Part shown: positions 16,558 to 64,000 of the stretch, piece after piece
How the letters are laid out: each line of letters opens with the position of its first letter
Numbering within the stretch: position 1 is the first letter of the stretch
Assembly: GCA_021299695.1 (NCBI GenBank)
Contig: JAJTEK010000007.1
Span: forward strand, 19,830-83,829
Direction of reading: 5' to 3'
Length of the DNA: 64,000 nucleotides
Origin: Pirellula sp.
GTDB lineage: Bacteria > Planctomycetota > Planctomycetia > Pirellulales > Pirellulaceae
The notes under the pieces: generated by a model
What the model was told of the DNA's origin: nothing
The model's database searches: none
What the model saw: the letters and a program-made list of their open reading frames with translations, nothing else
Position numbers and translations under genes: made by a program

Positions 16558-16640
16558 CTGCGCTCGGCTTGTCGGTCCGGGGTCGCCCCGGGCTTTCGGA
16601 ACGTCACCCTGGGCTTCCGCCTCCTGAGTTCTGCTCGTAA
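16558..16640 (+). pseudogene. Orphan 3' fragment of an FGE-fold gene (DGR variable-region remnant)
   Basis: This fragment reads in frame as LRSACRSGVAPGFRNVTLGF followed by RLLSSA, the same as the end of the first FGE domain at 22018-22101 except for a set of codons. The seven altered codons carry 12 base differences, all in codon positions 1 or 2. The last 26 bases are identical to the gene ends at 22.08 and 23.21 kb. No FGE coding sequence lies upstream, so only the last ~27 codons of a former target gene remain. It is followed by the same ~355-bp sequence that lies downstream of the 19.5-23.2 kb gene. Confidence 0.8.
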
Positions 16641-16998
16641 GGCCAAGGCGACGGAGTCGAAGGCAGACTTGAGGCTTGAGGGGGGAGGGGAGGGTAGGGT
16701 GCGGTGAAGCGGTCGGCCAAACATGGATTATGGATCCTCTGCCCACCAATCCACCATTCTCATTCGGCTCTGTTCAACCCATCGACCGCGCAACCCACCA
16801 TCGAGCACGGTACGTTCCGCGGTTGGTATTATCCTGGTGCGGTGTCTCTCCCCTCGTAAAATGGGTCTGTGGCCCGTTTGTGGATGAGGGCGATGGAAGG
16901 GCAAAGAGGCACGCCTATATTTGATGAGCCTAATGTCGGGCATGAAGGCGATCGATTGGTGACGTTCACGCACGGCCTCGGAGGGCCATGCTACGGTT
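16641..16998. repeat. Flanking direct repeat, copy R1
   Basis: A ~355-bp non-coding stretch that is closely similar to 23236-23590. Shared landmarks in order are GGGTGCGGTGAAGCGGTCGG, ATGGATTATGGATCCTCTGC, CATCGACCGCGCAACCCACC, GGTACGTTCCGCGGTTGGTA and, at the end, a palindromic GCACGGCCTCGGAGG unit. Together with R2 it brackets the three-gene MoxR/FGE cassette in the same orientation. Confidence 0.85.
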
Positions 16999-17082
16999 AG
17001 TCGTTGAGCCTGCCGATCCCTTCGGTTAGAATCAATCCGGATTACAAATATCTCGCTGAACGATCCTTATCACACCCAAATC

Positions 17083-18417
17083 ATGCTTCTTACCGATCAA
17101 CAATGGGATCAACTGGAATCGATATTCGAAAAAGTGACGCTCGGCAGCCACGGACGCCAAGCACTCCTCATCCCGATCGCAAGATCGGTGCGTCGGGACG
17201 TGGCTGACTCGCCTTTTGCCGAGTGGTTGGCAATCCCCGGAGCGGATGATTTTGTTGTGATCATGCGATACGTGATTCAAAAGGCCCAAGAGCCAGCACT
17301 TGAGAAAGCTCTCCTTCAAGGTCTTAAATCAAGAGCTTTGAATCAACAAGATCAAAACACTCTAACTTCTTGGCTTGAATCGCCGTCGCAACACCAACGC
17401 TCCCCCGACTTCGAGAGCACTGACGATGTGATTAAAACCCTATCGATCAGCCAAGGTGCAGAGAAGGTGCTTAGGCAGAGCATCCAACTCTTTGAGGAAA
17501 ATGCAAACGATAGAAAGCAATTCGTAATCGGTACTATCTCGAATGCGCTCTCCTGTGCTAAAGATCTCGCATCGAATCTAAAAAATTCAGGATGCCTCAA
17601 TCTATCGCCAAATGCAACCGGTGATGATATTGCCAAGGCGCTAGTAGGGAACGACCTTCCGGTCAAGCTTCTAGATGATATTGTGGACCACTGGAGCAGG
17701 TTCCCCAATGCAAACAAATTTATTGCGGAAGATGCGTCCGAGTTCCATCTGATTAAAGAGATCTTAGTCATGGAATCCCTCCCCGCCGAGGATCGAAGTC
17801 AGTTTCGACATGCGTTGCTCGAAGCAAACGATCACGCTTCCAGTCCGGGCCCCTCGTCTGATTTGGATGTTACTGTCCATAAGGAAGACGGGCGCATGCT
17901 TGATTACATCGAAAAACTCATTCGGCAGACGTGGTTGTCATTAACTATGGAACAAGACAGACTTTCCGAAGCACTTCGTATTTTGCTGAGCCATCGTAAA
18001 GCAGACCTCCATGAAAAGACGAGATTGCTGAGTAAAGTTCGATTTGTAACGGAGCCTAGCGAGGCAGATGACAACCAGTATCGTAATGGGTTGACCGCAA
18101 ACTCAATTGCTGAACATCTGATCAATGCTCTTGCGGGCAGGGTGCGAAAAGTTGAGAATCCATTGGCAGTGCTAACTCGAGATCTCGATCGAATGTCCCG
18201 GGAGAAGGTACTCGTGGTCATGACCGTGGCCGACAAACGTGAACGACTAAGCTATCTTGATTTGCTAAAACAGTCCTTTCCAAGCGTGCAACCCATTGGG
18301 CTCAGTCCGTACGAAGGGGACATCTATGCCCAAGTGACCCATCACTTGGAATGGATCGAGAAAAAAATCCCTAGGGAATACGTTATGAAACTCGATGACG
18401 GACCTGCCCATCGGTAA
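17083..18417 (+). CDS. Unknown protein preceding MoxR ATPase (VMAP/EAD-like candidate)
   Basis: A 444-residue soluble protein with no signal peptide or membrane helix. The N-terminal ~90 residues are a compact helical segment (LTDQQWDQLESIFEKV then ADDFVVIMRYVIQKA), which resembles in size and style the effector-associated (death-like adaptor) domains found in NTPase conflict systems. The middle (100-260) is helical, and the C-terminal third holds an alternating alpha/beta part (KVLVVMTVADKRERLSYLDL). I recognise no enzyme motif. It is 43 bp upstream of the MoxR gene on the same strand, with AT-richer codon use than the flanking housekeeping genes. By position it would be the third member of a MoxR-vWA ternary system; this is inference from layout, not homology. 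Confidence 0.6.
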   Translation: MLLTDQQWDQLESIFEKVTLGSHGRQALLIPIARSVRRDVADSPFAEWLAIPGADDFVVIMRYVIQKAQEPALEKALLQGLKSRALNQQDQNTLTSWLESPSQHQRSPDFESTDDVIKTLSISQGAEKVLRQSIQLFEENANDRKQFVIGTISNALSCAKDLASNLKNSGCLNLSPNATGDDIAKALVGNDLPVKLLDDIVDHWSRFPNANKFIAEDASEFHLIKEILVMESLPAEDRSQFRHALLEANDHASSPGPSSDLDVTVHKEDGRMLDYIEKLIRQTWLSLTMEQDRLSEALRILLSHRKADLHEKTRLLSKVRFVTEPSEADDNQYRNGLTANSIAEHLINALAGRVRKVENPLAVLTRDLDRMSREKVLVVMTVADKRERLSYLDLLKQSFPSVQPIGLSPYEGDIYAQVTHHLEWIEKKIPREYVMKLDDGPAHR

Positions 18418-18460
18418 CACGACCACCTAACTTTCTTTCTGATCACCCAGCGGATTAACC

Positions 18461-19531
18461 GTGAAACCAACTGAAAATCAATCGGTCCCGATTCGTACTC
18501 CTAACGGAGACGAGTTCTGCCACTTGCTGAGCAACCAAGAACAAGACGCGATTTATGGAGCCATCGCCGCCAATCGACCACTCCTGGTCCGCGGTGAACC
18601 CGGACTGGGCAAGTCCCAACTCGCTCTTGCAGCCTCCTCGCTGCTGAACCGTCCCTACAAAACGTTCACCATCGATTCGCATACCGAAGCCAGAGACCTG
18701 CTCTATTCCTTCGATGCCGTTCAGCGGCTTGCCGAAGCCCAAGTCGCAGCAAACTACTTTCGTGACGATCGCGAAGCACTACGCAAAGCGATTCGTGTTC
18801 GACGGTTTGTATCGCCCGGTCCTCTATGGTGGGCTATCTCCTGGACTTCGGCAAATAAGCAGCAGAAAATTTACAACTCGAATCGACAGGACGAAACTCC
18901 CGTGTTTGCAAGTCCTCAGCCGCCAGGAACCTGGGAGTCCAAGCACGGGATCGTCATTCTGATTGATGAAATCGATAAAGCAGACTCGAGCTTGCCCAAC
19001 GGTCTGCTCGAAGTACTCGGTTCGCACCAGTTCTTGCCAGCGGGCTTTAGGAAACCGATCGTCTCAGAGAGCAATACCCAGCCTCCCCTGATCGTTATCA
19101 CCACCAATCGGGAGCGGGCGATGCCCCCAGCGTTCCTCCGGCGCTGCTTGATCCTCGACCTTGTGCTTCCGCAGTACGAGCTAAGAAAAAATTCACCGGA
19201 TCCTTCCAGCGATGAACTCGGAGAAAGTAATCCCTTCATCGATCATTTCGTGCAGCTTGGACAAGCCCATTTTGGGACACAAATCCCGGAAAGCGTGTAT
19301 TCGAGTTTGGCGGAACTGCTGCATGAAGACCGTACCATGGCGGAGGAATCCCAAACAGGGACCAAGCCTGGTCCGGCCGAGTACATCGATCTGCTCAGGG
19401 CCATGCACCAATGGGTTGCATCGGACGCACCCACCAACACGCCTTTGCCTAGTTCCGACGAGGCTAAGTACGAAGACCTTTGCCGAAGGCTCAAAGCGTT
19501 CTTTTTCTCGAACAAGTACCGTGAGTTTTAG
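18461..19531 (+). CDS. MoxR-like AAA+ ATPase
   Basis: A 356-residue AAA+ protein of the MoxR/AAA_5 class, starting with GTG. Walker A is GEPGLGKS at residues 45-52, Walker B ILIDE at 166-170 (followed by IDKAD), sensor 1 TTN at 214-216, and an arginine-finger candidate lies in FLRRC (225-229). Such ATPases act as chaperone-like remodellers, usually with a von Willebrand A partner. The expected partner follows after only 3 bp: the 1236-residue vWA-like/FGE protein. The long insert between Walker A and Walker B (about residues 95-160) is typical of the family. The role would be ATP-dependent assembly or activation of the partner. Confidence 0.88.
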   Translation: MKPTENQSVPIRTPNGDEFCHLLSNQEQDAIYGAIAANRPLLVRGEPGLGKSQLALAASSLLNRPYKTFTIDSHTEARDLLYSFDAVQRLAEAQVAANYFRDDREALRKAIRVRRFVSPGPLWWAISWTSANKQQKIYNSNRQDETPVFASPQPPGTWESKHGIVILIDEIDKADSSLPNGLLEVLGSHQFLPAGFRKPIVSESNTQPPLIVITTNRERAMPPAFLRRCLILDLVLPQYELRKNSPDPSSDELGESNPFIDHFVQLGQAHFGTQIPESVYSSLAELLHEDRTMAEESQTGTKPGPAEYIDLLRAMHQWVASDAPTNTPLPSSDEAKYEDLCRRLKAFFFSNKYREF

Positions 19532-19534
19532 CGG

Positions 19535-22500
19535 ATGGATGACTTAGCGATTCCTCGAACACGCTCCCAGGGTGACTATTGGCGCGGTGATTTGCTCCGG
19601 ACGATGCTCTTTTTTGAAAGTAGCCAGCGCGATTTTGTCTCGTTTGCCCTTCTACGCGGGTACGATTTCGAATCGCACTTGCCCATCGAAGAACCGCCGA
19701 TCCTCCCCCCGTCGGTCGTTCCATTAGAGGAACGGGTCGATGAAAAGGTCACCGACTCGCCATCGGTGATTCAACCCGTCTCCGAGCGACTCTGGGTGCC
19801 ACTGCGTTATCTCGTAGATCGATTCGCTCCTGAAACGTATCTCGGTATCCATGGACTCGACAAAACGCAGAACAAAGAAGTCGCGGTGATTCGCGATGCG
19901 CAGATACTCCAACCACAAGTGAAATATCTCGCGGCTTGGCCTGAATTGCGCAACCGTCTTGATCCTCTTTTGGGCTTCCCGAAGCGTAATCGTCGTTTAG
20001 ATACCGAGGTTTTGATCAAGCGAATCTCACGAGGCGATCCCATCCGCCAAATCCCCTTCTATCAAAGGAAGCGAACCCACGATCAAATCACCGTCATCAA
20101 GGAACATGCTCTGCACTGTGCTCCCTACCGACTCGATCAGGAAATGGTAGTTGAGCATCTTTCAAAAGCGACCGCTCGAGGAGGGTTGCAGGTTCTCGAT
20201 GCGTTCTTCCCCTATGGCTTGACCAATCCTGCATCCGGCGATTCGTCGACGGTCATCCGGCGGCGGGAGGTGGAACCCACGCCGGGTAGCCATATCCTGA
20301 TCCTTGGCGATTTGGGTTTGTTGCTCAAGATCCAGGACGCGTTCGATCGGGATGCCGTCGAGTGGTGGTACCGGGCATGCCGCCGTTGGAGTTCGCGTGG
20401 GTGCAAGGTATTTGCGTTGGTTCCCTTGGGTTGTGAGCGAGTACCCGCGAAACTCAGGGCCTGGGTTGAGCCGATCGCTTGGCAAGGCGATGCGGTCAGG
20501 AGTTTGACCCATCAGCAGCAGGAACAAGGGGTCACTCGTTTGCTGACGATGGCTTATCCCGCTCAACAGATAGAGCCAGGTTTATTGAGAGAGTTTCGGC
20601 GTCTGTGCGCGGGCTTGGAGGATGCATCGATCGAGGCTCGATTCTGGCAGGATTGGCGGCATGGTGGTCCGACGTACAACGCGGTCAAGCAAACCGAGGC
20701 ATCTGCTCGCAAAGCGTTTGAGACAGACTTCGAGCAACTCGATGATTTGACCATCACTCAAATACTTCGCTCGATGCGCCATTATCGAATCGCAAGAGGT
20801 TACAGCGTGCTTTGGCAGATGGAGCTGATGAATCTTCCGAAGCGTCTTCGTGATCTGATCGATCCGAACAGCGCCGAGCAAGACATAGCGAATCAGACCT
20901 ACCAAGCCTTATGCTTTCAGATGCACCATGGAGGAACCTATGGTTTGCGAGATCGATTGATGTCGCTGAGTCTCCATGCAAGCGAGCATGCGATCGAGGA
21001 TTCGGATATCGGGTCGGCGGTTCGAACCATTCGAAACAGGTGCTTGCCTGATGCCAAGCGGAGCGACCAAACGCGTTTCGTCGAGTTGCCACCGTCGGTC
21101 GAAACGCGCAAGGTACAGATCGAATGCACACCCTCGGGGATCGGATTACGGGGAGTTGGCAAATCCGCATTGAATTCGATTGCTGTTGGTTCCAGCAACA
21201 GGGTCACGATGGCAAGCGGCCGGCCGGTTTTGGAGTTATATGTTCCCGGGGGATCGATTGAGAATCCGATAAGATCTTTTTGGAAATCCGGTAAGAAGCC
21301 CGATTGGGTCAGCGCGTTTGGTAAGGATGACTATGGGCTATGGTGCGAGTTCCAAGTGCCAAACCGCTGGTCTGACGATAAAGCCGCAAGCAACGATCGC
21401 AACGGGAGTGATCCTCAGGGCTTTGTCACTCAGCGGATGAGATGGATCAAGCCTGGGAAGTTCGTGATGGGTTCGGATGCGAGTACTAAAGAGTTATGGA
21501 TTGGAGATGAGACAGAGCATGAAGTAACGTTGACGCAAGGCTTCTGGATGGCCGATACACCGTGTACGCAGGGGCTTTGGATGGGTGCCGGTGCACGTGA
21601 GAATCGCAGTCGATTTCCAGGGTTCAGCAATCCAGTGGAGCGAGTATCGTGGGAGGATTGCCAAGGGTGGCTCAAGGGACTTGGGGAAGTTTTTCCACTG
21701 ATGCAGCCATCGCTTCCGACCGAGGCTCAGTGGGAGTACGCTTGCCGGGCTGGTTCGACCGGCCGGTACAGCTTTGGTGATGAAGAGCGGGAACTAAAGA
21801 GGTACGCTTGGTATGATGAGAACAGCGGTCATACCACGCACGCTGTTGGTGAGAAGCTGCCCAATGCATGGGGATTGTACGATGTGCATGGCAATGTGTG
21901 GGAGTGGTGTCAGGATTGGTATGGCGAGTATTCAGCAGAGCGAATAACAGACCCGACTGGCCCTAGCGAGGGCACGTCGCGCGTGGTTCGCGGTGGGGGT
22001 TGGTACGACCCCGCGCGGTATCTGCGTTCGGCTTGTCGGAGCAGGCTCGCCCCGGGCGATCGGCTCAGCCTCCTGGGCTTCCGCCTCCTGAGTTCTGCTC
22101 TAGGGGCCGAGCCGAGCGAGCGAGCGATGCTGCCCGAAGCGGAGCCGGGCACAGAGCGAGCGAGGATCGGCTCGGCCGAATTGGACTATGGTTTTTTGCG
22201 TTCGATCGATTTGGATGCAGTTGGCCAGACGACTGCTGAACACCAGTTCACAGAGATCGAGGTGAACGCTTACACGAGCATCCGCGTGGTGAGCGATCAA
22301 GAAGGATACCAGTTTGATCGGCTTGAGAAACCCGACTGGGCGGTGGAGTTTGGACACGATTCGTATGGGTTGTACTCGGTATTCGAGGTGGAGCCCGAGA
22401 AGAAGGGAACACCGGTACGTCAGACGATGCGCTGGATCCCTCCGGGGAAATTTGTCATGGGGTCAGCAAAGGGTAGGGATTACGGTCGAGGGAATGAGAG

Positions 22501-23245
22501 TCCTGAGCATGAAGTAGTGATCACGCAAGGGAATTGGATGTTCGATACGCCTTGTACCCAAGGGTTATGGATGGCGCTGATGGGTAAGAACCCAAGTTAC
22601 TTTCCGGATCCAGAACGACCAGTGGAGCGAGTTGGCTGGGAGGATGCTGTAGGGTTTGCACAGAAGCTGAACGCTTGGTTTGAGAAGCGGAATTCAAAAT
22701 CCCGAGGCAAGAAGGTTTTGGGTTGGAATGAGTTGTCTTTTCGATTGCCGACGGAGGCCGAGTGGGAGTACGCATGCCGAGCAGGCACTCAGACGGAAAC
22801 GTATTTGGGTGATTTAGAGATTCCTGGTGATGCAAATGCACCGCTGTTGGATCGGATCGGCTGGTACGGTGGTAATTCGGGGTTGGATTATGATTTGGAA
22901 AGATCGGTTTCACTGGATCTACCTTGGCTTAAGGATCGACAGTATCCGGACAAGATGGGAGGTACTCGAAAAGTAGGTGGGAAAGAGCCGAACAATTGGG
23001 GGTTGTATGATATGCTTGGGAACGTTTGGGAATGGTGTAAGGACTGGTATTCGGATCACATTCCATCATCCGTCGCCGTCGATCCGATCGGACCACCTGA
23101 AGGGAATCGCAAAGTGTTTCGAGGCGGTGGATGGAACTCACCTGCTAGATATCTCCGAGCTGCGTATCGTCACAACCACAGTCCTAGTCCGATGGCAAGT
23201 ACCATGGGCTTCCGCCTCCTGAGTTCTGCTCGTCAGCCCAAGTGA
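19535..23245 (+). CDS. vWA-like protein with two C-terminal FGE/C-type-lectin-fold domains
   Basis: A 1236-residue protein. Residues ~185-330 look like a von Willebrand A-type Rossmann fold (ITVIKEHALHCAPYRLDQE, then ILILGDLGLLL and CKVFALVPLG), but the DxSxS metal site is absent. A helical region follows (330-500), then FGE-sulfatase-type domain 1 (~635-855) and domain 2 (~965-1236). Both have the PTEAQWEYACRAG or PTEAEWEYACRAG core, GNVWEWC and a terminal GFRLLSSA. Catalytic FGE cysteines are not at the expected site, so they are more likely binding domains. The end of domain 1 (21990-22080) is a probable DGR variable region. The gene follows the MoxR gene by 3 bp. The linker between the domains (~22100-22160) is GAGC-repeat rich. 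Confidence 0.8.
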   Translation: MDDLAIPRTRSQGDYWRGDLLRTMLFFESSQRDFVSFALLRGYDFESHLPIEEPPILPPSVVPLEERVDEKVTDSPSVIQPVSERLWVPLRYLVDRFAPETYLGIHGLDKTQNKEVAVIRDAQILQPQVKYLAAWPELRNRLDPLLGFPKRNRRLDTEVLIKRISRGDPIRQIPFYQRKRTHDQITVIKEHALHCAPYRLDQEMVVEHLSKATARGGLQVLDAFFPYGLTNPASGDSSTVIRRREVEPTPGSHILILGDLGLLLKIQDAFDRDAVEWWYRACRRWSSRGCKVFALVPLGCERVPAKLRAWVEPIAWQGDAVRSLTHQQQEQGVTRLLTMAYPAQQIEPGLLREFRRLCAGLEDASIEARFWQDWRHGGPTYNAVKQTEASARKAFETDFEQLDDLTITQILRSMRHYRIARGYSVLWQMELMNLPKRLRDLIDPNSAEQDIANQTYQALCFQMHHGGTYGLRDRLMSLSLHASEHAIEDSDIGSAVRTIRNRCLPDAKRSDQTRFVELPPSVETRKVQIECTPSGIGLRGVGKSALNSIAVGSSNRVTMASGRPVLELYVPGGSIENPIRSFWKSGKKPDWVSAFGKDDYGLWCEFQVPNRWSDDKAASNDRNGSDPQGFVTQRMRWIKPGKFVMGSDASTKELWIGDETEHEVTLTQGFWMADTPCTQGLWMGAGARENRSRFPGFSNPVERVSWEDCQGWLKGLGEVFPLMQPSLPTEAQWEYACRAGSTGRYSFGDEERELKRYAWYDENSGHTTHAVGEKLPNAWGLYDVHGNVWEWCQDWYGEYSAERITDPTGPSEGTSRVVRGGGWYDPARYLRSACRSRLAPGDRLSLLGFRLLSSALGAEPSERAMLPEAEPGTERARIGSAELDYGFLRSIDLDAVGQTTAEHQFTEIEVNAYTSIRVVSDQEGYQFDRLEKPDWAVEFGHDSYGLYSVFEVEPEKKGTPVRQTMRWIPPGKFVMGSAKGRDYGRGNESPEHEVVITQGNWMFDTPCTQGLWMALMGKNPSYFPDPERPVERVGWEDAVGFAQKLNAWFEKRNSKSRGKKVLGWNELSFRLPTEAEWEYACRAGTQTETYLGDLEIPGDANAPLLDRIGWYGGNSGLDYDLERSVSLDLPWLKDRQYPDKMGGTRKVGGKEPNNWGLYDMLGNVWEWCKDWYSDHIPSSVAVDPIGPPEGNRKVFRGGGWNSPARYLRAAYRHNHSPSPMASTMGFRLLSSARQPK
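21990..22101 (+). other. DGR variable region A with IMH-like end
   Basis: This is the last ~37 codons of the first FGE domain. Relative to the orphan copy at 16558-16640, the differing codons are AGC/TCC, AGG/GGG, CTC/GTC, GAT/TTT, CTC/AAC, AGC/GTC and CTC/ACC, while the intervening codons (GCC, CCG, GGC, CGG, CTG) are identical. All 12 differences fall in codon positions 1 or 2, as if both copies were randomised at adenines of AAC/AAT/AGG template codons. The invariant tail from 22075, GGGCTTCCGCCTCCTGAGTT, is in the place where an initiation-of-mutagenic-homing (IMH) sequence would be. Confidence 0.8.
23205..23233 (+). other. IMH-like sequence at the end of FGE domain 2
   Basis: The same 26-base end (starting GGGCTTCCGCCTCC) closes the second FGE domain, but the codons before it (23160-23204) are not related to variable region A by adenine changes: third positions differ too. 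It may be a retired target or a product of recombination with a neighbouring copy. Confidence 0.6.
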
Positions 23246-54404: not shown

Positions 54405-57310
54405 TCAAGGTTTTCCTTTCAGAGCCCTGGCAACGCGAAACCCGATAAAGATGTTCGTACTCGTAGGACCATCGTGATCGCGAAACGACGCCGAAGCGTC
54501 CCGTCCAAAGTCATAGAACGAGCCGCCCCGCAACACCCGGGGAACTGTCGCATCGCGAGCTAGGCTTTCTTGCCTGTGTTGCTGCTCTTGCTCTAGAAAC
54601 GGGGATACTTTGGCTGGGTCCTCGTAGTTCGAGCGTTGCCTATCCTGACACCACTCCCATGTGTTCCCCTGCATGTCCATCAGTCCCTTGTTCTGGCCTT
54701 CCGGGCCACGATCCAGCGCCTTGCTCCCTGATGAAGCCCGTGCAGGATCGGGAATAACTGTGAACCCTTTTCTCCGTTCGATGGAGTCTTGTCGGTGGTC
54801 TCGGAGCAATTGATCCGGGATTTGATGAACATCCGGTCAGCCTTTTCTAAATGCTCGTTGCGCTCCCACCAGTACTCGAGTTCCCAAGAGGCAAACCCGT
54901 ACTTGGCCGCATACTCCCACTCGGTCTCCCAAGGCAACTGACACGACTGGCCCTTCCACCGTAGCCACTGGCAGTACACCCACGCATCAAAAAAAGAAAT
55001 TGCTACCGCAGGATGTTTCAGGGTCTCGGAATGCTGCGCGTAATTTGTCCAGATCTGTGTGTGCCGAGGATTGTACAAGCGGTACCAAGCGTTGCTGATG
55101 GTCTGCCTGCCAAGCTGAAACGAGTCGATCGATAGCTCCGGATTGCTGACAGAAGTGAAACCGTAGAAAATCTCCAGAAGCTCTCTGACAGCTACTTCAG
55201 AATCTTTTCGCTGGAAGATCGCTTTGAGTTTCTGCTTGCGTCTTTCCTTTTCCAGATTACCAGCACGTGTTTCAAAGAACTTATTTTCAGCAAAATACTC
55301 TTCAAGCTTCGCCTCGTCACGAAACTCGTTGAGCGTTTTTTGACCAATCTCCATTGCCCCAGGAATTTCCTGCCGCTCGGGTGTCGTACCCAGCTTGACC
55401 GTCCCACCGGGAATGAGCAGCAGATGCTCGGTGATTTCCTCCGCGACAGCATTCAACGCTGCCCCATGTTCACCAGCCAGAAAACTCCCTTCGAATTCGC
55501 CCCACCAGCGCTCGCGAATGGCGTTGGCTCGGGCTCTGACATTCGCAAAACCCTTCTGAGTATAAGCGTCGAGCGTCTCCCACGATCGGTAAATCATCTC
55601 GTTGGATCGCTTGGAATAGAACCCGTAGCCCTCGTCGCGTGGATCATTGTCCTCAGGTGACTGTTTCCTGATGTTGGGCTCATATAGCATCGCAATGGAT
55701 TCTAGCCAAACCGAAGGTGTACGAGCCTTGCTGGGCATCTCGCACAGGAACTGCCAAAACGGATAATACTGATCGGAATCGTTACGGTCTGGCAAATAAA
55801 TCCAGTCCCACAAGTACTGCGATTCCTCCTTGCTTGCGTAGTTCGCAAAATAAAGAGCAAGCAAAAACTCGTGCAAACTGCGATTAGCCCACACGATCCG
55901 TCGATTCGATTGGCCAAACGCCACCTCGTCAAATATCCCATAATTGAGAAATTGATTCAAATGCTGCACGGCTTTCCATACTTGTACAAAATTGGTTTTC
56001 AGTCCACCGTTAGCTCGCTGGCAAATCTTTTCCTTGAACTGGTCGTACTGCGGGACGCTTTCGAACTCGGGTATGTCGTACAAATAAGCCGGCACAGGAT
56101 CCGCAGCTTTGCTGGGTTTGCCGCTGGTGAATGTTCGTGCAGAAGGACCCAAATGGATGTCGAAGGACTGGAAGGCTTGGCGAGCCAGTAACTCAAGAAC
56201 CTCCGTCGCTTCCACTCCGTCATACTCTTTTGGACGAGTTGCCATGCCCCTTGCGATCATCGTAACGAGGGCTTGGTAGTAGACATCTGCCGCCGTTCGG
56301 ATGTCTTGATAGTTGTCCACTTCTCGCAGGTACTCCAAAACGCGAGGGATGCACAGAAGTTCCCTGGCCGTCTCCGGGATCTTGGAATAGCGCGGCTCGC
56401 GTCTGGCCGGCGTCTGATCAGACGCAGCGGTCTCGATCCACCCCAGGTAGCGCATCTGCTGATCGACGGTAAACGGCTCGACTCGAACGAAGGTCCATGC
56501 TGGGTTAGAAAACGCTCGCTTCCATTGCATCAAAATGGCATTCGACCGCCCCGCGACGATCAGCCGGATGCGATTAATGTCGGGATCTGCTGAATTGAGA
56601 AACTCCGCGAGCAGTTCGCTTTTGTCGGAGATCTGATCGAGTCCGTCGGCTAGCAGGGTTAGTTTGCCTTCTTTGGCGCGTTGGGCAAGGAGCAACTCGA
56701 GGGCCGCGCGTTGAATTTCCAGCCTTGTGCCCTTGGCCTGGGTAATTCTCAACAACATTCGGTCGGCAACGAAGCGGATCAGCACATCGAAAAAAGAGGC
56801 GCGTGTTGGCTTGTTGGAATTATCCTTGAGAACCTGCTCCAGGTTGGTCAGATCGATCTTTACCGCTATCTGGCCATCCTGAGCGTTTCCAGTTGAGTTG
56901 AGCCGGTAAAGCAGCCACTCGATCCGATTTGTTTTGCCCATCCCCGCATCGGAGACGATGCATAAGCGGTTGAGGGAAATCGTGTCGGGGACGGGTTGCT
57001 TGGTTTGCACATTGCAATGGATTTGATCGCATCGAATTTCCCGGTCGAGGATCGAATTGCCATCGAGGATTTCGTGCCAAAACTTCTCGAGGTCTTCTTC
57101 ATAGAGGGTTCGCTTCCTTAGATACTCCTGTTGTGGATCCAGACCGGTGGTATCCATCGCAAACTGCTGGGTTCGACGCATGGGACGCAGCAGTTGCGGA
57201 TCGAGGCATGCACGTCTTTTGTCTGGGTCCTGGCTGGACAATAGACTCAGGACCTGGTCGTGGATGAAATCAGGGAGTGGCTTTCGTGAATCGTCGCTAA
57301 TGGGCTTCAT
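54405..57310 (-). CDS. STAND/NACHT-like NTPase with C-terminal FGE-fold domain (one frameshift)
   Basis: About 968 codons in two frames. Walker A is SDAGMGKT (120-127), Walker B LLADGLDQ (219-226), then LIVAGRSNAIL. Helical arms follow to ~600, then an FGE/C-type-lectin domain (~630-968) with LPWETEWEYAAKYG, GNTWEWCQD and GFRVARA. The frame breaks at an A-run (54768-54771): one missing A in GGAGAAAAGGG separates NGEK from GFTVIPDP. Both sides are conserved FGE sequence, so it is one gene with a recent mutation, a sequencing error or, less likely, frameshifting. The last ~120 bp (54422-54541) are a probable DGR variable region. The trypsin-like protease gene lies 84 bp upstream. Role: ligand-sensing switch protein. 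Confidence 0.8.
54422..54541 (-). other. DGR variable region E
   Basis: On the minus strand this reads RVLRGGSFYDFGRD, ASASFRDHDGPTSTNIFIGF, RVARA. Compared with 61602-61720 the framework codons (GCT TCG GCG TCG, CGC, CCT ACG, ATC GGG TTT CGC GTT GCC) are identical, but 13 codons differ, with 17 of 18 base differences in positions 1 or 2. The nucleotide similarity starts abruptly at CCGGGTGTTGCG; upstream the genes are diverged. Confidence 0.85.
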
Positions 57311-57394
57311 TCAACGCTCAGTGGTTAAGGGGAAATTTCGACTGTGGGGCCGACGGACCTTGTCCATTCGCTTGCTTACATCGGTCGGATACGA

Positions 57395-58309
57395 CTAAGC
57401 ATCATCGCCATCCTGCCAAAACCGCTTCGGATATTGATCGAAAAGCTCTGCATACAGAGTCGATCCGGTGTTAATCCCTTGGGAATAAATCGTTTCTGCG
57501 GTATTCGAATCAAATACCTTCACGACACTTTTGGCAATCCTCACAGGTTCCAATCCATTGCTTTCGGCAGAGACGTACTCTCCGGCAGGGTTCCGTGCGT
57601 AGGCCCAAGCGCCGAACCATTGGTCCTGGAGAGGACGAGTCCAATCCGAATCCCCAAACACAATCTTCTTCAACACATCTTCAAAAGAGATCGTTTGAAA
57701 ATCCAAATCTTTCAGGTTGAGAATTTTTTTCTGTGCGTTCAACCAATCGATCAGTAGATCGCTTGAGGTAGCTCGCGTAGGAAGAGATTTTTCGCCACCA
57801 AGGACCCCGATCCCGAAAATGGCAATTTCTGGAAACTCACTAAGCACGAGCGGTCCTCCACTGTTTCCTTCCATTCCAGACCCTAGGAACTGCAATCCCT
57901 TGCCGCTCGACGGTGCAATGCTTTTCAGAGAGATTCCATCTGTTGGCGCCATTTCGCTACCACCGAAAAGACAGCATTCGTCCGATGGAAACTGCGACAC
58001 CTTCCAAAGTACTCCACTCGCCAATGGTATCGGGCGGACCTGGGTCGAAACAAAATCTTTTGGTAACTGAAGCAATGCAACATCAAGGTCACGGCAGCTT
58101 TTGACTTTTGTTAGTTCCCTATACCCGTTTTGATCAGCAATCCAATTTCCGCCTCGTTGAGAAACGTGTTCACATGTCAGCATATACTTTTCGGATAACA
58201 AAAAACCCGTTCCTTCAAAGCTGTGGTGCTCCTCGCCATTTTTCGTCTCTCTACGAAAGAGCTTGAATACACGATTCTCTAAAGCCTTGAATTTCGGATC
58301 GGATTGCAT
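57395..58309 (-). CDS. Trypsin-like serine protease with unknown C-terminal region
   Basis: A 304-residue cytosolic protein (no signal peptide). The chymotrypsin-fold triad is visible: His48 in MLTCEHVS, Asp76 in RDLDVALLQ, and Ser150 in GMEGNSGGPLV. The C-terminal ~130 residues (from LLIDWLNAQKKI) are helical with no recognised domain and may be an adaptor. The gene lies 84 bp upstream of the NTPase-FGE gene on the same strand, so the two are likely one operon. Trypsin-like proteases linked to STAND NTPases have been proposed as effectors that cut cell proteins on activation, a caspase-like role. Lack of a secretion signal supports an intracellular target. Confidence 0.85.
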   Translation of the reverse strand: MQSDPKFKALENRVFKLFRRETKNGEEHHSFEGTGFLLSEKYMLTCEHVSQRGGNWIADQNGYRELTKVKSCRDLDVALLQLPKDFVSTQVRPIPLASGVLWKVSQFPSDECCLFGGSEMAPTDGISLKSIAPSSGKGLQFLGSGMEGNSGGPLVLSEFPEIAIFGIGVLGGEKSLPTRATSSDLLIDWLNAQKKILNLKDLDFQTISFEDVLKKIVFGDSDWTRPLQDQWFGAWAYARNPAGEYVSAESNGLEPVRIAKSVVKVFDSNTAETIYSQGINTGSTLYAELFDQYPKRFWQDGDDA

Positions 58310-58449
58310 TTTCTACCTTTCATCATCGCACTGTTGAATCTCCGACTAGGATCAAGTATAACCCGTGAGCGACCGGTAGTCCTGTGAGGATCTCTCCATG
58401 CTGACTACTCGATCCACTCCACAAACCTTCTCCCGAAGAGGCAAGTCTA
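58310..58449. other. Divergent intergenic region
   Basis: This 140-bp gap separates the divergent protease and unknown genes. It is the only candidate regulatory region for both conflict-system operons. No palindrome or clear promoter box stands out. Confidence 0.3.
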
Positions 58450-59328
58450 ATGGGTATCATCTACGCTGAGGCGATTCGCGATTACGATTTCAACCAATCG
58501 AACGAAATCGGCCGGGCTCCTGGACGTCATGGCACGACCATCACGGAAGTTTATCTTGATCCTGCAGTAAAAGGTGGCGTAGCGTACGGCAGGGAGGTAC
58601 CCGGAACATTTGGAGCCATGGACTACCATATCACCTACCGTCAAACTGGGGTTTCGACCCCCCGTACCGAGGGTCGGATTCGAGTCGAGGCTCAGGTCGC
58701 CAAGGAATCAGGTAACCCTTTTGAAGCTGGTGACAAAGTGGTTTTTGCTCGCGAGGCGGCATCGAAGTGGGTTACCTATAAGCCATTAAAGAATCCGAAC
58801 AAGCATGGGAAGGACCCGAGCGATCTGGATCCGATGAGTGATTTCGAACAGGTCTTAGCGGAGATCGAAAACTGGTCCTGTGACCCCTGGGAAACCGGTC
58901 AGTATCTCACAGCGGGGCTCAGTGTTCCTCCGAAGTTATACGATGACGATGTCCGCAATTACTCTCGCGGAGACTGGTACCTGAGTTGCTGCAAGGACTT
59001 TGATCAATGCTGGAAAGTCCTCTATGAATCGGATCCAGTTTGCGAACTCCTCGACCTAACGGAACGAGGTGTAATCAAGATCGGCCCTAAGGAACTCCCG
59101 GTCGATCATGTCAACCGAAAGCTCTGCGATGAAGCCAAGACCGAAGCGAATCCGCTGATATTTATATCGATCCGTCAGGCGCTCGCCGGGGTCGGACATA
59201 AACCGACGGAGACCAGTGCTGTAACTCCAGTGCCTGTGTTCACCTCGGTGGACTTCCTTTATCGAGACCACCTCTACAACCTAAATAGGAAACTCCGAGA
59301 TAGGGAGACCGAGCCGTTGGAGGAATAA
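58450..59328 (+). CDS. Unknown protein preceding an NTPase-FGE gene
   Basis: A 292-residue protein that I do not recognise. It has no signal peptide or membrane helix. The N-terminal third contains several Gly/Tyr/Arg-rich stretches (RAPGRHGTTITEVYLD, GGVAYGREVPGTFGAMD), and the middle has aromatic- and Cys-rich text (WYLSCCKDFDQCW). Its stop and the next GTG start are separated by 3 bp, so it is co-translated with the NTPase-FGE gene and should act with it. By position it corresponds to the protease gene of the neighbouring operon and may be an alternative effector or adaptor; that is inference. Confidence 0.65.
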   Translation: MGIIYAEAIRDYDFNQSNEIGRAPGRHGTTITEVYLDPAVKGGVAYGREVPGTFGAMDYHITYRQTGVSTPRTEGRIRVEAQVAKESGNPFEAGDKVVFAREAASKWVTYKPLKNPNKHGKDPSDLDPMSDFEQVLAEIENWSCDPWETGQYLTAGLSVPPKLYDDDVRNYSRGDWYLSCCKDFDQCWKVLYESDPVCELLDLTERGVIKIGPKELPVDHVNRKLCDEAKTEANPLIFISIRQALAGVGHKPTETSAVTPVPVFTSVDFLYRDHLYNLNRKLRDRETEPLEE

Positions 59329-59331
59329 TTC

Positions 59332-61737
59332 GTGACCTCGACAAACCGCAGTCCCTTTATCGCCGACCAATGCCTCTATGTGCTGAGCCCATCCAACGGA
59401 CAGAGCGTATCTCTGAGGGAGTGCTTGCGACTTGCCAACCTCCCCGAGTTTGATGCGATCGAGAACTCGCCGTCCAAGAGCGATCGCGCGACGGGTGCCA
59501 CCGAACTCTGGCAACGGATCGAGTCTGCTAGCCAAAGGACGCGGTTCCTAACCTCCTTGGAGATTCCAAGCCAAACATCGGACGTCCGAGCTGGTGGGCA
59601 GGATTCCATCCCCCGACAGATGAATGGAAGCCATTTTCATCGAAAATTGCTTTGCATCACCTCGTCTGCAGGCATCGGCAAAACGATGGCCGTCGAACAG
59701 ACAATACATCTTCACTCACGCCTTCCTGACCATTGGGTGATCCACTACCAATTTGACAAGTTACCCATCGATCCGGACGGATTCTGGGGTTTAGTTCCCA
59801 TGGACGGATCGAGCGATTCTATCTACGAACGCATAGCAAAGCACTTGGATCAAACCCGCAAACCGAGCGATTCACCCGTCCGGAAAGCGGCCGCAAATTT
59901 GCTTGTCAAATCCAAAATGGATGCCGGTCAAGTAACAATCATCGTCGATGGGCTCGATGAGCATGACCCTGCAACGGGAGTATCCCGCGCGCGTGCCCTG
60001 AGAAAATTTCTGACCCAGAACCCTCGATTGCACTGCGTTGTCGCCGGTCGTCCCTATGCCATCGCCGAAACCTATTGGGAAGCATTGTTCGCGACGAGCG
60101 AAGATCGTCGCGATGACAAGTCCCTATGGCTTTTCGGTTGCGTCGGTATGTTCACCCAAGACCAGATCCGACGTTCGCTTGGACCCAAACGCGCCGAACG
60201 AATCTTGTCGTTGGCCGGTGAGCTCAATCTCACACCCCGTACCATCGAAGTCCTCAGAAGCCTCCCCGACGAGAGTTTCGCACGCATCAACAATTTTTGC
60301 GATGTGTATTGGGAGTCCCTACCAAGAACCTTCGAGAAGGATGTGCTTAAGAAAAACAAAGGTGGCGTCACTCCGAACGTAGGGGGTATCCAAATCGATA
60401 CTTTCATCGAATACGCCTGCGCCTTGGCCATCACGATGTATCTTGAGAAGAAACGTGAGGTGCAATACAGTGACATCGCCGACGATCTTTTGACGCGTCT
60501 GAGAACGATCCCGAAATGGCAGGGGGATTCGGCGGAGTCGCTCGACAAACGTCGCGAATCGATCGAGGCGCTGAACGCCGGTGCGATCGAGTTCCGCTTA
60601 TTCAACCGAATTGACACCATGGTTTCATGGCGTGACAACACCCTTCGAGATTTCTTTGCGGCCCTTTGGATGGTTCGCTACAGTAACGAGGCCGAACTCA
60701 AGCAATTGATCGAAACCATTCCAGAGCGGCCAAGGACGCCTGACGATAATGAAGTTTGGGAGTTCATCGCAAGTATGCCGGTTGGAGCCATGGTGGCCGG
60801 CCCCAAGAGTGAACGCTGCATGCGATGGCTGCACCTTGCCAAAGCGGTCTTCAAGCAACCAGAGAAGCATCCTCGTCCCACTCAATTGATGTGGTACGCG
60901 TGGCCAAGGTTGGCAGAACTCACGGCGAAGAATCCCGAAATCAATGTTCCTGCCGAAGTACCAAGAAGTGCCCAATCGATTCGAGAGCGGTTTTTATCGG
61001 AGTTTGAGGCACTAGGTAAAACGCAAGAGTCGGCACTGATCATTGACGAAGACCTGATCTTCATTCCGATCGAACCGCTTGATAATGGATCATGGAATGT
61101 CGCGGTCGGCCATCCGGACGAAAACGACAATCAACCGAGAAGGATAGAACTCCACGGGCCATACTCCGCATCCAAGTTTCCGATCACCCGACGGCTTTAT
61201 AATCTGTTCGATTGCAATCATGATGTCCATTACCGAGACGATTTTGAGAAATACTGCTCGGAACAGCGATGCCCTGTTATCCGAGTGAACTGGTACGACG
61301 CACAGATGTTTTCAATATGGAGTGAGAGTCGCTTGCTTACCGAATGGGAATGGGAGTATACCTGCAGAGCGAATCGAAGTGCACAGGATCATCAGAAGAA
61401 AGAGCCAGAGCATTGGCGGGTAGATCCGATCGATGCTCAAGCACGAGAAAAGGTTGCATGGTTCGACGTAAACAGCCAAAACCACACATGGCCGGTCGAT
61501 GCGAAAACAGATCTGTCGCATGAGAATTCCTTTGGTCTCGTGGACATGCTGGGGAACGTCTGGGAGTGGACCGAAGGCGTCTACAAGGTGGGCGGAGTTT
61601 CCCGGGTGTTGCGTGGCGGCTCGTTCGATGGCAATGGTTTGCTCGCTTCGGCGTCGTATCGCGATCACAGTGATCCTACGGGTACGTACGTCAGTATCGG
61701 GTTTCGCGTTGCCAGAGCTCCGGAAGGAAAATCTTGA
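59332..61737 (+). CDS. STAND/NACHT-like NTPase with C-terminal FGE-fold domain
   Basis: An 801-residue protein, start GTG. Walker A SSAGIGKT (111-118) and Walker B VTIIVDGLDE (201-210) are followed by CVVAGRPYAI and a winged-helix/helical arm (about 270-560). The motif DFFAALWMVRY near residue 445 is shared with the next gene. The C-terminal FGE-type domain (about 575-801) contains LTEWEWEYTCRA, GNVWEWTEG, VLRGGSF and GFRVARA. The ~115 bp at 61602-61717 are a probable DGR variable region whose differing codons encode the ligand-exposed positions. No catalytic FGE cysteine pair is in the loop, so the domain is expected to bind, not modify. Transcribed behind the unknown gene at 58.4 kb. Confidence 0.85.
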   Translation: MTSTNRSPFIADQCLYVLSPSNGQSVSLRECLRLANLPEFDAIENSPSKSDRATGATELWQRIESASQRTRFLTSLEIPSQTSDVRAGGQDSIPRQMNGSHFHRKLLCITSSAGIGKTMAVEQTIHLHSRLPDHWVIHYQFDKLPIDPDGFWGLVPMDGSSDSIYERIAKHLDQTRKPSDSPVRKAAANLLVKSKMDAGQVTIIVDGLDEHDPATGVSRARALRKFLTQNPRLHCVVAGRPYAIAETYWEALFATSEDRRDDKSLWLFGCVGMFTQDQIRRSLGPKRAERILSLAGELNLTPRTIEVLRSLPDESFARINNFCDVYWESLPRTFEKDVLKKNKGGVTPNVGGIQIDTFIEYACALAITMYLEKKREVQYSDIADDLLTRLRTIPKWQGDSAESLDKRRESIEALNAGAIEFRLFNRIDTMVSWRDNTLRDFFAALWMVRYSNEAELKQLIETIPERPRTPDDNEVWEFIASMPVGAMVAGPKSERCMRWLHLAKAVFKQPEKHPRPTQLMWYAWPRLAELTAKNPEINVPAEVPRSAQSIRERFLSEFEALGKTQESALIIDEDLIFIPIEPLDNGSWNVAVGHPDENDNQPRRIELHGPYSASKFPITRRLYNLFDCNHDVHYRDDFEKYCSEQRCPVIRVNWYDAQMFSIWSESRLLTEWEWEYTCRANRSAQDHQKKEPEHWRVDPIDAQAREKVAWFDVNSQNHTWPVDAKTDLSHENSFGLVDMLGNVWEWTEGVYKVGGVSRVLRGGSFDGNGLLASASYRDHSDPTGTYVSIGFRVARAPEGKS
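61602..61720 (+). other. DGR variable region D
   Basis: This reads RVLRGGSFDGNGLL, ASASYRDHSDPTGTYVSIGF, RVARA. It is near-identical in framework to region E of the gene at 54.4 kb, with substitutions confined to codons compatible with AAC/AAT/AAG template codons. The constant end ATCGGGTTTCGCGTTGCCAG would serve as IMH-like target. Confidence 0.85.
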
Positions 61738-62133
61738 GCTTTTACCCTTGTCTGCCTGGGGGCGCGATTTTTCTAGCATCCTGGCAAAGTGGTAGTCTTC
61801 ATCGCTTGAAACGCACGGCCTCGGAGGGCCATGCTACGCAGCTAGGTTAACATCTACCCGTAGCATGGGCCTCCGAGCCCGTGCGCCGCTTCGCTAGGAT
61901 TCACGCACCGCCTCGGAGGGCCGTGTTACGAAGTTAGGTGAGCATCCACACGTAGCATGGGCCTCTGAGCCCGTGCGCTGCTTCGCTAAGAATCACGCAC
62001 GGCCTCGGAGGGCCATGCTACGAAGAGGGCGGTGCTACGAAGAGGGCCGTCCTAGTGTGGTATAATGCGTCTCTTCAACCTCTTCGATCGATGTTAATCT
62101 CTTGTCCCCTCGCTAAGCCGCTACCTAATCCGT
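61738..62133. repeat. Intergenic region with five palindromic repeat copies
   Basis: Alternating copies of ACGCACGGCCTCGGAGGGCC and its inverse (CGTAGCATGGGCCTCCGAGC) lie at about 61812, 61858, 61903, 61953 and 61992, each ~28 bp plus spacer. This is the same family as at 14.3 kb. Folded, it would make large hairpins that could stop transcription between the two NTPase genes. No open frame. Confidence 0.85.
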
Positions 62134-64000
62134 ATGTCGCAGCCCAGTAGAAAACTCTTCGTTCCTGATCAAGCGATCTATTGGCTCGATGCCAGTCGAA
62201 GCAAATCGACCACCAATACCAACCAGCTATCTGAGCCGACCGACAAACACCACTGGCTGGCAACTCACAATCTCCCAGAGTTTGTGGAGTCCTCCTCAAA
62301 GGAGCAACAACAATCGCCTTGGATTCGCATCGAAGGGACGGCGGCTCGAAACAAGTTTTTGAAGGATCTTGGTCCAGACTCCCAAAGACCTAAGCGACGA
62401 CTCCTTTGTTTCACGGCCTCGGCTGGCGTCGGCAAATCGATCGCACTAGAGCAGATCGCTTATCTGCGAAGCCTCGAGCCAGAGCACATTGTCATTCGCT
62501 ACCACTTCAGCGAACTGCCCTCCAATCCCCTGCATTTCAGGCTTGCTGGTGGTTCGCAACGCAGTGTCATCCCGGCGGGAAAAACCAAAACTCTGGTAAC
62601 TGCCTTGCTGAAAACCATCTTTCCTGCTGAGGAACAAGATCCAAATTGGCGAAGCCTAACCGACGCCTACGAGCAAGCGGTTCTACAATGGATCGAACTT
62701 AAGATCGCTCAGGGGCATGTGACGCTTATCGTCGATGGACTCGACGAGCTCAATGCGGATCTCAAGTCAGAAACAGGCGCACCTGGATCCGCTCGCGCAC
62801 GAGCTCTTTCCTCGTTGCTCTACGATGGAATCTACAAAAACCTGCACTGTGTGGTTGCTGGTCGGCCATATGCGATCCATAGTGACTACTGGAACGACTT
62901 ATTTAAATCGAAAGGGCTCCATCGCCATTCCAACGGCGGTTCGGATTGGGAGTTTTGCCTCGCCTCGCTGTTCACGGAAAAGCAATCGCAGCAGTACCTA
63001 GGTTCGAGATACAACAAGCTAGATTCGCTTCGGGCCCAGACCCCACTTACCCCCCGTCACTTGGAGGTGATTCGAACGTTACCATTTGACCGATTTGAAA
63101 ACTTGCACTCGCTTGCCTATGTCTACTGGGAGATGCTTCAAGCGAGTTTGGAGAAGGATCTGACCAGAAAAGGGAATGTCGGTCCATTCGAGCGCTTGAA
63201 TGTTCCGGTAGACGAGAAGCAATACATCAGTTATCTCGCCGCGTTGGCTTCGCTGACGATGGAAAACTCCGCGGATCTGTTGTCTCTGCGTTTAGCCACT
63301 GTCAAATCAAAATTGAATAGCCGAGTTTTGCAAACCCCTGCATGGCAACTGGCTAAAGATTCGGCGGAAGCAAAAATCAAACTCATCGCCGGACTGAACT
63401 CCTCCTCGATCGAATTCAATTACCTGCGACAAAGCAACGAGGAGGTGGTATGGAAAGACCGCACCGTGATGGATTTCTTCGCTGCGTTGTGGATGGTCCG
63501 GTACTCGACAGCGGCTCAGAGGAAGACGATCTGCGAGCAAGTCCCCCGACGCGGGGAAAAACCACTTCATGAGAACCGACGCGATCTTTGGACGTTCATT
63601 GCAGGAATGCCTTCCGAAGCGCTGGAGCAGTTCGATGAGGACTTACACTACGATGCCAGATGGAATCAGCTTGTGCAGCGATTGTTCCAACCATTTTCAG
63701 ACGCTAAGCGTCCGACGCAGCTTATGTATATCGCTTGGCAGGAACTTCAAAGGGGTGTCGAGGACAAGATTCGCGAGGTTTCGGTGACCGAGGTGATGAA
63801 CTCGTATACCCAACAGTATGTGAATCTAAGGAGTCGAGGAGACGAGGCATCGAAGATCATTGAAGAGGATCTTGAGGGACAGTACGAGAATATCCCTGAG
63901 CCTGCGCATGGATGGAGCAGGGTTGCAGTCGGACACAAGGACTACCCTGACAATCCTCCGCACACCGTTGCGCTCAAGGGTCCCTATGAGGTATCTGCCT
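62134..64000 (+). CDS. Third STAND/NACHT-like NTPase-FGE paralog, 3' end outside window
   Basis: An open frame of 622 codons from the ATG at 62134 to the window end without a stop. Walker A is SAGVGKS (96-102) and Walker B VTLIVDGLDE (196-205), followed by CVVAGRPYAIH. It shares DFFAALWMVRYS, TFIAGMPSEAL and RPTQLMYIAW with the gene at 59.3 kb, and the last visible residues (RVAVGHKDYPDNPPHTVALKG, PYEVSA) correspond to the start of the paralog's FGE domain. So a C-terminal FGE domain, possibly with its own variable region, should follow beyond the window. The N-terminal ~90 residues are not conserved between the paralogs. Confidence 0.85.
   Translation, partial: MSQPSRKLFVPDQAIYWLDASRSKSTTNTNQLSEPTDKHHWLATHNLPEFVESSSKEQQQSPWIRIEGTAARNKFLKDLGPDSQRPKRRLLCFTASAGVGKSIALEQIAYLRSLEPEHIVIRYHFSELPSNPLHFRLAGGSQRSVIPAGKTKTLVTALLKTIFPAEEQDPNWRSLTDAYEQAVLQWIELKIAQGHVTLIVDGLDELNADLKSETGAPGSARARALSSLLYDGIYKNLHCVVAGRPYAIHSDYWNDLFKSKGLHRHSNGGSDWEFCLASLFTEKQSQQYLGSRYNKLDSLRAQTPLTPRHLEVIRTLPFDRFENLHSLAYVYWEMLQASLEKDLTRKGNVGPFERLNVPVDEKQYISYLAALASLTMENSADLLSLRLATVKSKLNSRVLQTPAWQLAKDSAEAKIKLIAGLNSSSIEFNYLRQSNEEVVWKDRTVMDFFAALWMVRYSTAAQRKTICEQVPRRGEKPLHENRRDLWTFIAGMPSEALEQFDEDLHYDARWNQLVQRLFQPFSDAKRPTQLMYIAWQELQRGVEDKIREVSVTEVMNSYTQQYVNLRSRGDEASKIIEEDLEGQYENIPEPAHGWSRVAVGHKDYPDNPPHTVALKGPYEVSA

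What the first reader, a model, noticed from the sequence alone, without database searches (positions are those of the whole stretch)
54422..61720. Two NTPase-FGE genes end in variable regions mutated only at inferred template adenines (DGR signature)
The last ~110 bp of the genes at 54405-57310 (minus) and 59332-61737 (plus) are nearly identical, while their upstream sequences are strongly diverged. Similarity begins sharply at CGGGTGTTGCG. Within the shared part 13 codons differ: GAT/TAT, GGC/GAC, AAT/TTT, GGT/GGA, TTG/CGG, CTC/GAC, TAT/TTT, AGT/GAT, GAT/GGT, GGT/AGT, TAC/AAC, GTC/ATC, AGT/TTT. Of 18 base differences 17 are in codon positions 1-2, and every one can be explained by randomised adenine in an AAC/AAT/AAG-rich template. 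The framework codons are identical. Genes with this pattern in a C-type-lectin/FGE fold are classic DGR targets. Two targets from one template imply a trans-acting retroelement.
Basis: partly seen in the sequence, partly recalled or inferred. Interest (0 to 1): 0.95.

Follow-up and report, generated by a model that had tools for sequence, protein, structure and literature searches.

The report
Hypermutated sensor genes, missing their mutator
Two nearby genes of a planctomycete bacterium end in short segments that differ almost only where one shared template likely had the base adenine, so they were likely rewritten by a diversity-generating retroelement to vary what these predicted immune sensors would bind; its template and an intact copy of its enzyme were not found in this genome assembly.

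Summary
VR A (54411-54539, minus) and VR B (61603-61731, plus) lie in a shared 157-nt block; from codon 5 on 18 bases differ, 17 at codon positions 1-2. Tests that could have failed: with the two syntenic VRs of a sister species, 76 of 105 columns are invariant and none is A. In 26 further homologue VRs, 233 of 234 residues at nine AAY-type sites are reachable by changing adenines only (K/E/Q/M/W 1 of 234, against 25% at other highly variable columns). The VRs differ 17-20% between the species, the genes upstream 4-5%. Of 16 non-self matches to the inferred template peptide in 396 genomes, 14 lie by a DGR reverse transcriptase. So these are DGR variable regions. But the machinery was not found: no matching template, and the assembly's only DGR RT is a fragment (130 of 347 positions). 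Nine other own-genome FGE genes, one in this window (21980), carry VRs fitting templates of sister genomes. Gene A is frameshifted; a third NTPase gene runs off the contig end. The kind is known (Dore 2024; Treponema targets without RT or template).

The parts
54405..57310 (-). Gene A: P-loop protein (by eye) with C-terminal FGE domain; frame broken (ORFs 54680-57310 and 54405-54809)
   Evidence: PF03781 in both pieces; 1-nt gap against the G010 gene
54411..54539 (-). VR A, 43-codon shared block; variable codons 9-32 at 54444-54515
57395..58309 (-). Trypsin-like peptidase gene between the two targets
   Evidence: PF13365, 29.8 bits, cut-off 27.6
58450..59328 (+). 292-aa protein of unknown family, with a counterpart at the same place in the G010 cluster
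   Evidence: no family; G010 order B, 313-aa frame, 305-aa frame, A
59332..61737 (+). Gene B: STAND-like NTPase (NPHP3_N) plus C-terminal FGE domain, 801 aa
61603..61731 (+). VR B, 43-codon shared block; variable codons 9-32 at 61627-61698
61811..62025 (.). Array of palindromic dispersed repeats directly 3' of VR B
   Evidence: D1, D2, I3; 47 matches on 12 contigs, both strands of a palindrome counted
62134..64000 (+). Third NTPase gene of the family, cut by the contig end before a VR could be read; 96% identical over 622 aa to P0024, which has its own VR
19535..23245 (+). 1236-aa protein with two FGE domains, 3' of an AAA_5 ATPase gene (18461-19531): a second DGR target in this window
21980..22096 (+). 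VR in 19535-23245; against the RT-linked template of G014:C99, 17 of 24 template A and 2 of 93 other bases differ

Best explanation
The last ~110 bp of these two NTPase-FGE genes are hypervariable segments that were likely written by adenine-specific mutagenic retrohoming from one shared template, by a diversity-generating retroelement acting from elsewhere. Shown: the adenine-limited pattern in the aligned VRs and in 26 further homologous VRs, excess VR divergence between two species, RT-linked templates of the same peptide frame in related genomes, and no cognate template or intact DGR RT found in this assembly. Inferred: a DGR RT copied one AAY-rich template RNA, misread its adenines, and the cDNA replaced the 3' ends of two or three paralogous genes in trans. 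Inferred: the variable FGE (C-type-lectin-like) face binds an invader-derived ligand, the NTPase transmits the signal, and the neighbouring trypsin-like peptidase is the effector. Untested: whether the system still works in this organism. The RT and template may be unassembled, or lost; these two options are the first two rivals below and divide this explanation between them.
For: Four VRs (A, B; C, D of G010): 29 of 105 columns vary, 27 of them at codon positions 1-2, 25 contain A, and of 76 invariant columns none is A (C25 G27 T24); with E (G014) 64 invariant, A 0. Orthologue pairs: VR 17.1% and 20.0% different against 5.1% and 4.4% upstream; 16 of 18 and 20 of 21 VR differences at positions 1-2, while position 3 is the commonest class upstream; invariant A 8 and 5, against a minimum of 15 and 16 in 886 and 690 overlapping control windows. 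26 further distinct homologue VRs: 233 of 234 residues at nine AAY sites reachable; K/E/Q/M/W 1 of 234 against 344 of 1354 at 53 control columns. Non-self hits of the inferred template peptide in 396 order genomes: 14 of 16 have a DGR RT match in the fetched locus, two of them partial. Yardstick in the genus, template against VR of the same genome: mismatches at template A 18 of 18 (G009:C38), 13 of 14 (G001:C162), 12 of 14 (G017:C180). 11 near-full-length DGR RTs in 9 of 27 genus genomes. FGE domain by Pfam.
Against: No cognate template in the own genome or in 241 family genomes; no intact DGR RT in G000, none at E<=1 in G010, and G014's RT-linked template is of another family. The VR is not unique in amount of change: control windows reach 31 differences in A/C (VR 18) and 21 in B/D (VR 21); it stands out in kind, not in number. 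Of 29 variable columns in A-D, four hold no A (codon 4, codon 13 twice, codon 21). E (G014) adds 12 variable columns, ten at position 3 and eight without A. Codon 32 fits the inferred template in only 15 of 26 homologues. Gene A is frameshifted. No hairpin beyond chance 3' of the VRs. The template was inferred from the VRs themselves.
Confidence: 0.92

Rival explanations
1. Relic: the VRs were written by a DGR that this lineage has since lost; the repertoire is now frozen and decaying.
For: Own-genome DGR RT is cut after profile position 136 and followed within about 300 bp by an integrase-type transposase frame. At C168 and C62 the DNA just 3' of a VR gene lacks the ~1.9 kb that holds RT and template in G014:C99. 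The five own-genome matches of the template-peptide search at E<=0.01 all lie in FGE genes, and none of the five own-genome matches to the G014:C99 template is a template. Gene A is frameshifted.
Against: VRs A/C and B/D carry excess differences between G000 and G010, so the loss would have to be later than their split and separate in the two lineages. RT/template loci in this genus often lie at contig ends: at least 6 of 11 within 1 kb (from; contig length of G009:C129 not seen), so dropout is plausible. The 163-bp flank at C168/C62 is partly a repeat.
Confidence: 0.4
2. RT and template are present and active, but missing from the assembly because template/VR repeats break contigs or the element sits on an unbinned plasmid or phage.
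For: The window ends at the contig end inside the third target gene; G010:C188 begins at the 3' end of its VR D; VR divergence between the two species.
Against: Two sister MAGs (G000, G010) both lack it, and G014 (96% complete) lacks this template. In the plasmid collection only distant FGE matches (16 records, all below 60% identity); one VR pattern gave 0 viral contigs.
Confidence: 0.52
3. No retroelement: gene conversion between paralogues plus diversifying selection on a ligand-binding loop.
For: Silent states in codon 4 pair A with D and B with C, across orthology, so tracts may move between paralogues.
Against: Selection alone does not explain why no invariant column is A or why K/E/Q/M/W are almost absent at nine hypervariable sites, nor the mostly adenine-limited mismatch to RT-linked templates in nine other own-genome FGE genes.
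Confidence: 0.03

Closest known systems
DGR-diversified STAND NTPase-FGE targets with a trypsin-like peptidase (Thiohalocapsa PB-PSB1 DGR 6; clade 5D), PMC10907252 (outline, section 8 and section 11 part 1 read; other passages searched)
   Same: Two or more NTPase proteins with C-terminal FGE VRs beside a trypsin-like peptidase gene; trans or incomplete DGR loci; MITE-like repeats at DGR loci
   Different: Planctomycetota; divergent gene pair plus a third paralogue; no DGR RT match in the stretches held around the targets in G000, G010 and G014 (64.0, 12.8 and 18.9 kb); the EAD8 adapter was not searched for specifically
Target genes in Treponema denticola isolates that lack RT and TR, PMC4891356 (passages read)
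   Same: VRs recognised through templates held by sister strains; remnants of lost DGRs proposed
   Different: There TvpA-type targets, many with lipoprotein signals; here NTPase sensors, and VRs of several template families in one genome
Bordetella phage BPP-1 DGR (recalled)
   Same: Adenine-specific change of AAY codons at the 3' end of a C-type-lectin-fold gene
   Different: There one cis cassette with RT, Avd, template and target together

Membership tests
DGR variable region / target gene | Differences confined to template adenines | tested here: met
   the template itself is inferred, not seen; exceptions told in the Against line
DGR variable region / target gene | VR at the 3' end of a C-type-lectin-fold (here FGE) domain | tested here: met
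   sequence hits to solved FGE chains, and a weak one to TvpA 2y3c outside the VR
DGR variable region / target gene | Relatives have an RT-linked template of the same frame | tested here: met
   same peptide frame beside RTs; not the cognate nucleotide template
Complete DGR cassette | Template repeat in the genome | tested here: not met
   none in the assembly (95% complete, 229 contigs)
Complete DGR cassette | Intact DGR reverse transcriptase | tested here: not met
   only a fragment at C192, profile positions 7-136 of 347
Complete DGR cassette | IMH and hairpin 3' of the VR | tested here: inconclusive
   shared tail; hairpin z -0.66 and 0.03; IMH cannot be told without the template
Complete DGR cassette | Avd accessory gene | not tested
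   no search made
STAND-FGE-peptidase conflict system (Dore 2024, DGR 6 type) | STAND/NACHT-type NTPase fused to a VR-bearing FGE | tested here: met
   gene B: PF24883 28.8 bits, cut-off 24.8; third gene below cut-off; gene A not met by Pfam
STAND-FGE-peptidase conflict system (Dore 2024, DGR 6 type) | Adjacent trypsin-like peptidase | tested here: met
   57395-58309
STAND-FGE-peptidase conflict system (Dore 2024, DGR 6 type) | Defence activity | not testable with these tools
   no PADLOC model matches the three NTPase-gene proteins scanned

The most novel reading that the evidence does not exclude
One planctomycete genome keeps at least eleven retroelement-written sensor VRs from at least four templates without an intact mutator. 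It is either a frozen immune repertoire whose mutators were lost after writing it, or a set of targets driven in trans by a mobile RT shared between cells.
Probability: 0.4. Interest if true: 0.65.

Novelty: new member of a known kind. Interest (0 to 1): 0.52.

Why it matters
It ties a planctomycete STAND-FGE-peptidase locus to DGR diversification without help from an adjacent RT. It also shows that DGR targets can be recognised without their template, by an absence of invariant adenines and of K/E/Q/M/W at AAY sites. Roux et al. [quoted passage not shown] a test of this kind could. Whether such sensor repertoires outlive their mutators becomes a question that long reads can answer.

Tried and rejected
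Retron-like RT at C107 as the DGR RT: rejected. Its best PADLOC model is RT_VI (168.5 bits; the sixth-ranked model still has 140.9), with an upstream protein matching HTH_VI (58.7 bits), and no template-like sequence stood out in the 3.5 kb locus. G014:C99 template as the cognate of A/B: rejected; the five own-genome hits do not include A or B. DGR hairpin 3' of the VRs: weak, not above shuffles. AlphaFold model of protein B: mean pLDDT 68 and below 50 over residues 741-801, which hold the VR, so not used and no fold search made. Viral contigs by one VR pattern: 0 matches. Plasmids by protein: 16 records, all below 60% identity and none covering 80% of the query. Replacement of the RT by MITE-like repeats next to VR B, as in Thiohalocapsa: only suggestive, as the repeat has matches on 12 contigs.

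Caveats on counts: one search kept only places with at least 80% identity at non-A template bases, which inflates the Fisher values; it examined 30 of 36 own-genome FGE matches (the loci returned) plus the window and L069, against 21 templates. One search found 644 proteins and listed 120; one search looked at the first 45, one search used an alignment of 26 rows (25 of them homologues). In one search, 31 of 45 fitted the frame, 14 were skipped, 27 were distinct, and P0001 (the window's own) was dropped. Control windows overlap and are not independent. One search used E<=1e-7, E<=1e-30; three of the 11 near-full-length RT matches have one in-frame TAG in the matched stretch, and at G009:C17 the place 3' of the RT is poorer in N codons and may be a VR.

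Full report
WHAT IS THERE. The window is G000:C44:19830-83829, so its last base is the end of an 83,829-base contig. Gene B (59332-61737) and gene A (54405-57310, minus, in two frames) flank a trypsin-like peptidase gene (57395-58309, minus) and a 292-aa gene (58450-59328) with no family match. A third NTPase gene starts at 62134 and is cut by the contig end; it is 96% identical over 622 aa to P0024, an 809-aa protein that ends in its own VR. The sister genome G010 has the same order of frames, 800 (B), 313, 305 and 967 aa (A), the last without a break (the 305-aa frame was not scanned, its start reads like the window's peptidase). Contig lengths of G010:C188 (12,780) and G014:C29 (123,220) equal those of QWPJ01000185.1 and JAPLNM010000029.1, both titled Planctomycetota MAGs.

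IS THE PATTERN MORE THAN CHANCE. Two VRs cannot test adenine specificity. Four can: A and B from the window, C and D from G010. Over 105 columns, 29 vary (14, 13 and 2 at codon positions 1, 2 and 3) and 25 of these contain an A; the four that do not are in codon 4, codon 13 (two) and codon 21. The 76 invariant columns are C25, G27, T24 and A0. With the window's A content (23%), 0 of 76 has a binomial chance of 2e-9. Adding E from G014 leaves 64 invariant columns, again no A, but brings 12 more variable columns, ten at position 3 and eight without A; I read these as older divergence of the framework. Orthologue comparison: A/C differ 5.1% upstream and 17.1% in the VR; B/D 4.4% and 20.0%. Position 3 is the commonest class upstream, positions 1-2 dominate in the VR. 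Some control windows change as much or more in number (maximum 31 in A/C, 21 in B/D), but none of 886 and 690 falls as low in invariant A (minimum 15 and 16; VR 8 and 5). So the VRs were most simply rewritten after the two species parted.

OUT-OF-SAMPLE TEST. A search with residues 560-801 of protein B gave 644 proteins, 120 listed. Of the first 45, 31 fit the frame RGG[SA]F-24-GFRVA; 27 VRs are distinct, 26 without the window's own. At nine codons inferred as AAC/AAT, 233 of 234 residues are reachable by changing adenines only. K, E, Q, M and W, which need a purine third base, occur once in 234 cells, against 344 of 1354 at 53 columns with eight or more different residues elsewhere in a 26-row alignment; 7 of those 53 columns, but all 9 VR columns, hold at most one. 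Restricted codons behave too: TAT 25 of 26, CAC 24, GAT 24, ACG 25 and 24, ATC (codon 30) 25. Codon 32 does not (15 of 26); the template there is probably AAY in other lineages.

LOOKING FOR THE MACHINE. PF00078 finds one RT in the own genome, at C107; PADLOC's best model for it is retron RT_VI, with an HTH_VI match upstream. The VR DNA finds only A and B in the own genome. A profile from ten RT frames beside VR- or template-like places in the genus finds an own-genome DGR RT fragment at C192:1683-2072, profile positions 7-136 of 347, beside an FGE gene with a VR and followed by an integrase-type transposase frame. In the genus, 11 near-full-length DGR RTs (over 400 bits) lie in 9 of 27 genomes, each with a match to the template peptide directly 3' of it; at G009:C17 that place looks more like a VR. 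The inferred template DNA finds no cognate template in 241 family genomes; besides the VRs and the G009 tail its matches are G021, G049 and G158, all next to a DGR RT match. In 396 order genomes the inferred peptide gives 16 places other than VRs A-E at E<=1e-7, of which 14 have a DGR RT match in the fetched locus, two of them only partial.

OTHER TARGETS. Against 21 templates, nine further FGE genes of the own genome carry a VR: C44 (window 21980-22096), C62 and C168 fit G014:C99; C14, C158, C192 and C201 fit G022:C31; C83 and C209 fit G011:C158. Mismatches are 14-23 of 24-36 template A and 2-12 of 81-93 other bases; Fisher values run from 4e-13 to 9e-8, inflated by choosing on non-adenine identity. 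No template of the G014:C99 family was found in G000. At C168 and C62 the DNA after the VR gene passes within about 80 bp to a stretch that in G014 lies about 1.9 kb further on, beyond RT and template; part of that stretch is a repeat, so a deletion is likely but not proven.

HOW IT LIKELY WORKS. A DGR RT copies one AAY-rich template, misreads adenines, and the cDNA replaces the 3' ends of two or three paralogous genes in trans. The FGE face would vary its ligand, the NTPase would pass on the signal and the peptidase would act; these last steps follow proposals of Dore et al. 2024 (PMC10907252; outline, section 8 and section 11 part 1 read, other passages searched) and Kaur et al. 2020 (PMC7159879, passages only). 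Targets without RT or template are described in Treponema denticola (PMC4891356, passages), and trans action and MITE-degraded RT loci in Thiohalocapsa (PMC10907252). Full-text searches for DGR with planctomycet (7 papers) and with orphan (13 papers, 12 listed) list no title on such a locus in this lineage; most of those papers were not opened, so this is a limited search.

VERDICT. DGR variable regions: yes. A complete DGR: not found in this assembly. Present activity: open.

Noticed in passing
window 16555-23245: A second DGR target cluster: partial VR-like piece at 16555-16631 outside any long frame, AAA_5 ATPase gene 18461-19531, and a double-FGE gene 19535-23245 with a VR at 21980-22096.
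   Followed up: partly
window 61811-62025; also about 14327-14706, 16966, 23564, 24378: Dispersed ~28-bp palindromic repeat, 47 matches (both strands of a palindrome counted) on 12 own-genome contigs, near both DGR target clusters of the window.
   Followed up: partly
L001 (G000:C107:44814-48335): RT whose best PADLOC model is retron RT_VI, with an upstream gene matching HTH_VI.
   Followed up: no
L130 (G000:C192), 1665-2342: Truncated DGR RT beside an FGE target gene with a VR, followed by an integrase-type transposase frame.
   Followed up: yes
L187 (G014:C99) against L188, L189 (G000:C62, C168): RT and template lie 3' of a VR gene in G014 and are missing from contiguous DNA at two related VR genes in G000.
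   Followed up: partly
L071 (G009:C49) 1008-1063: The 3' tail of the VR block alone, without a recognisable VR before it, in another genome of the genus.
   Followed up: no
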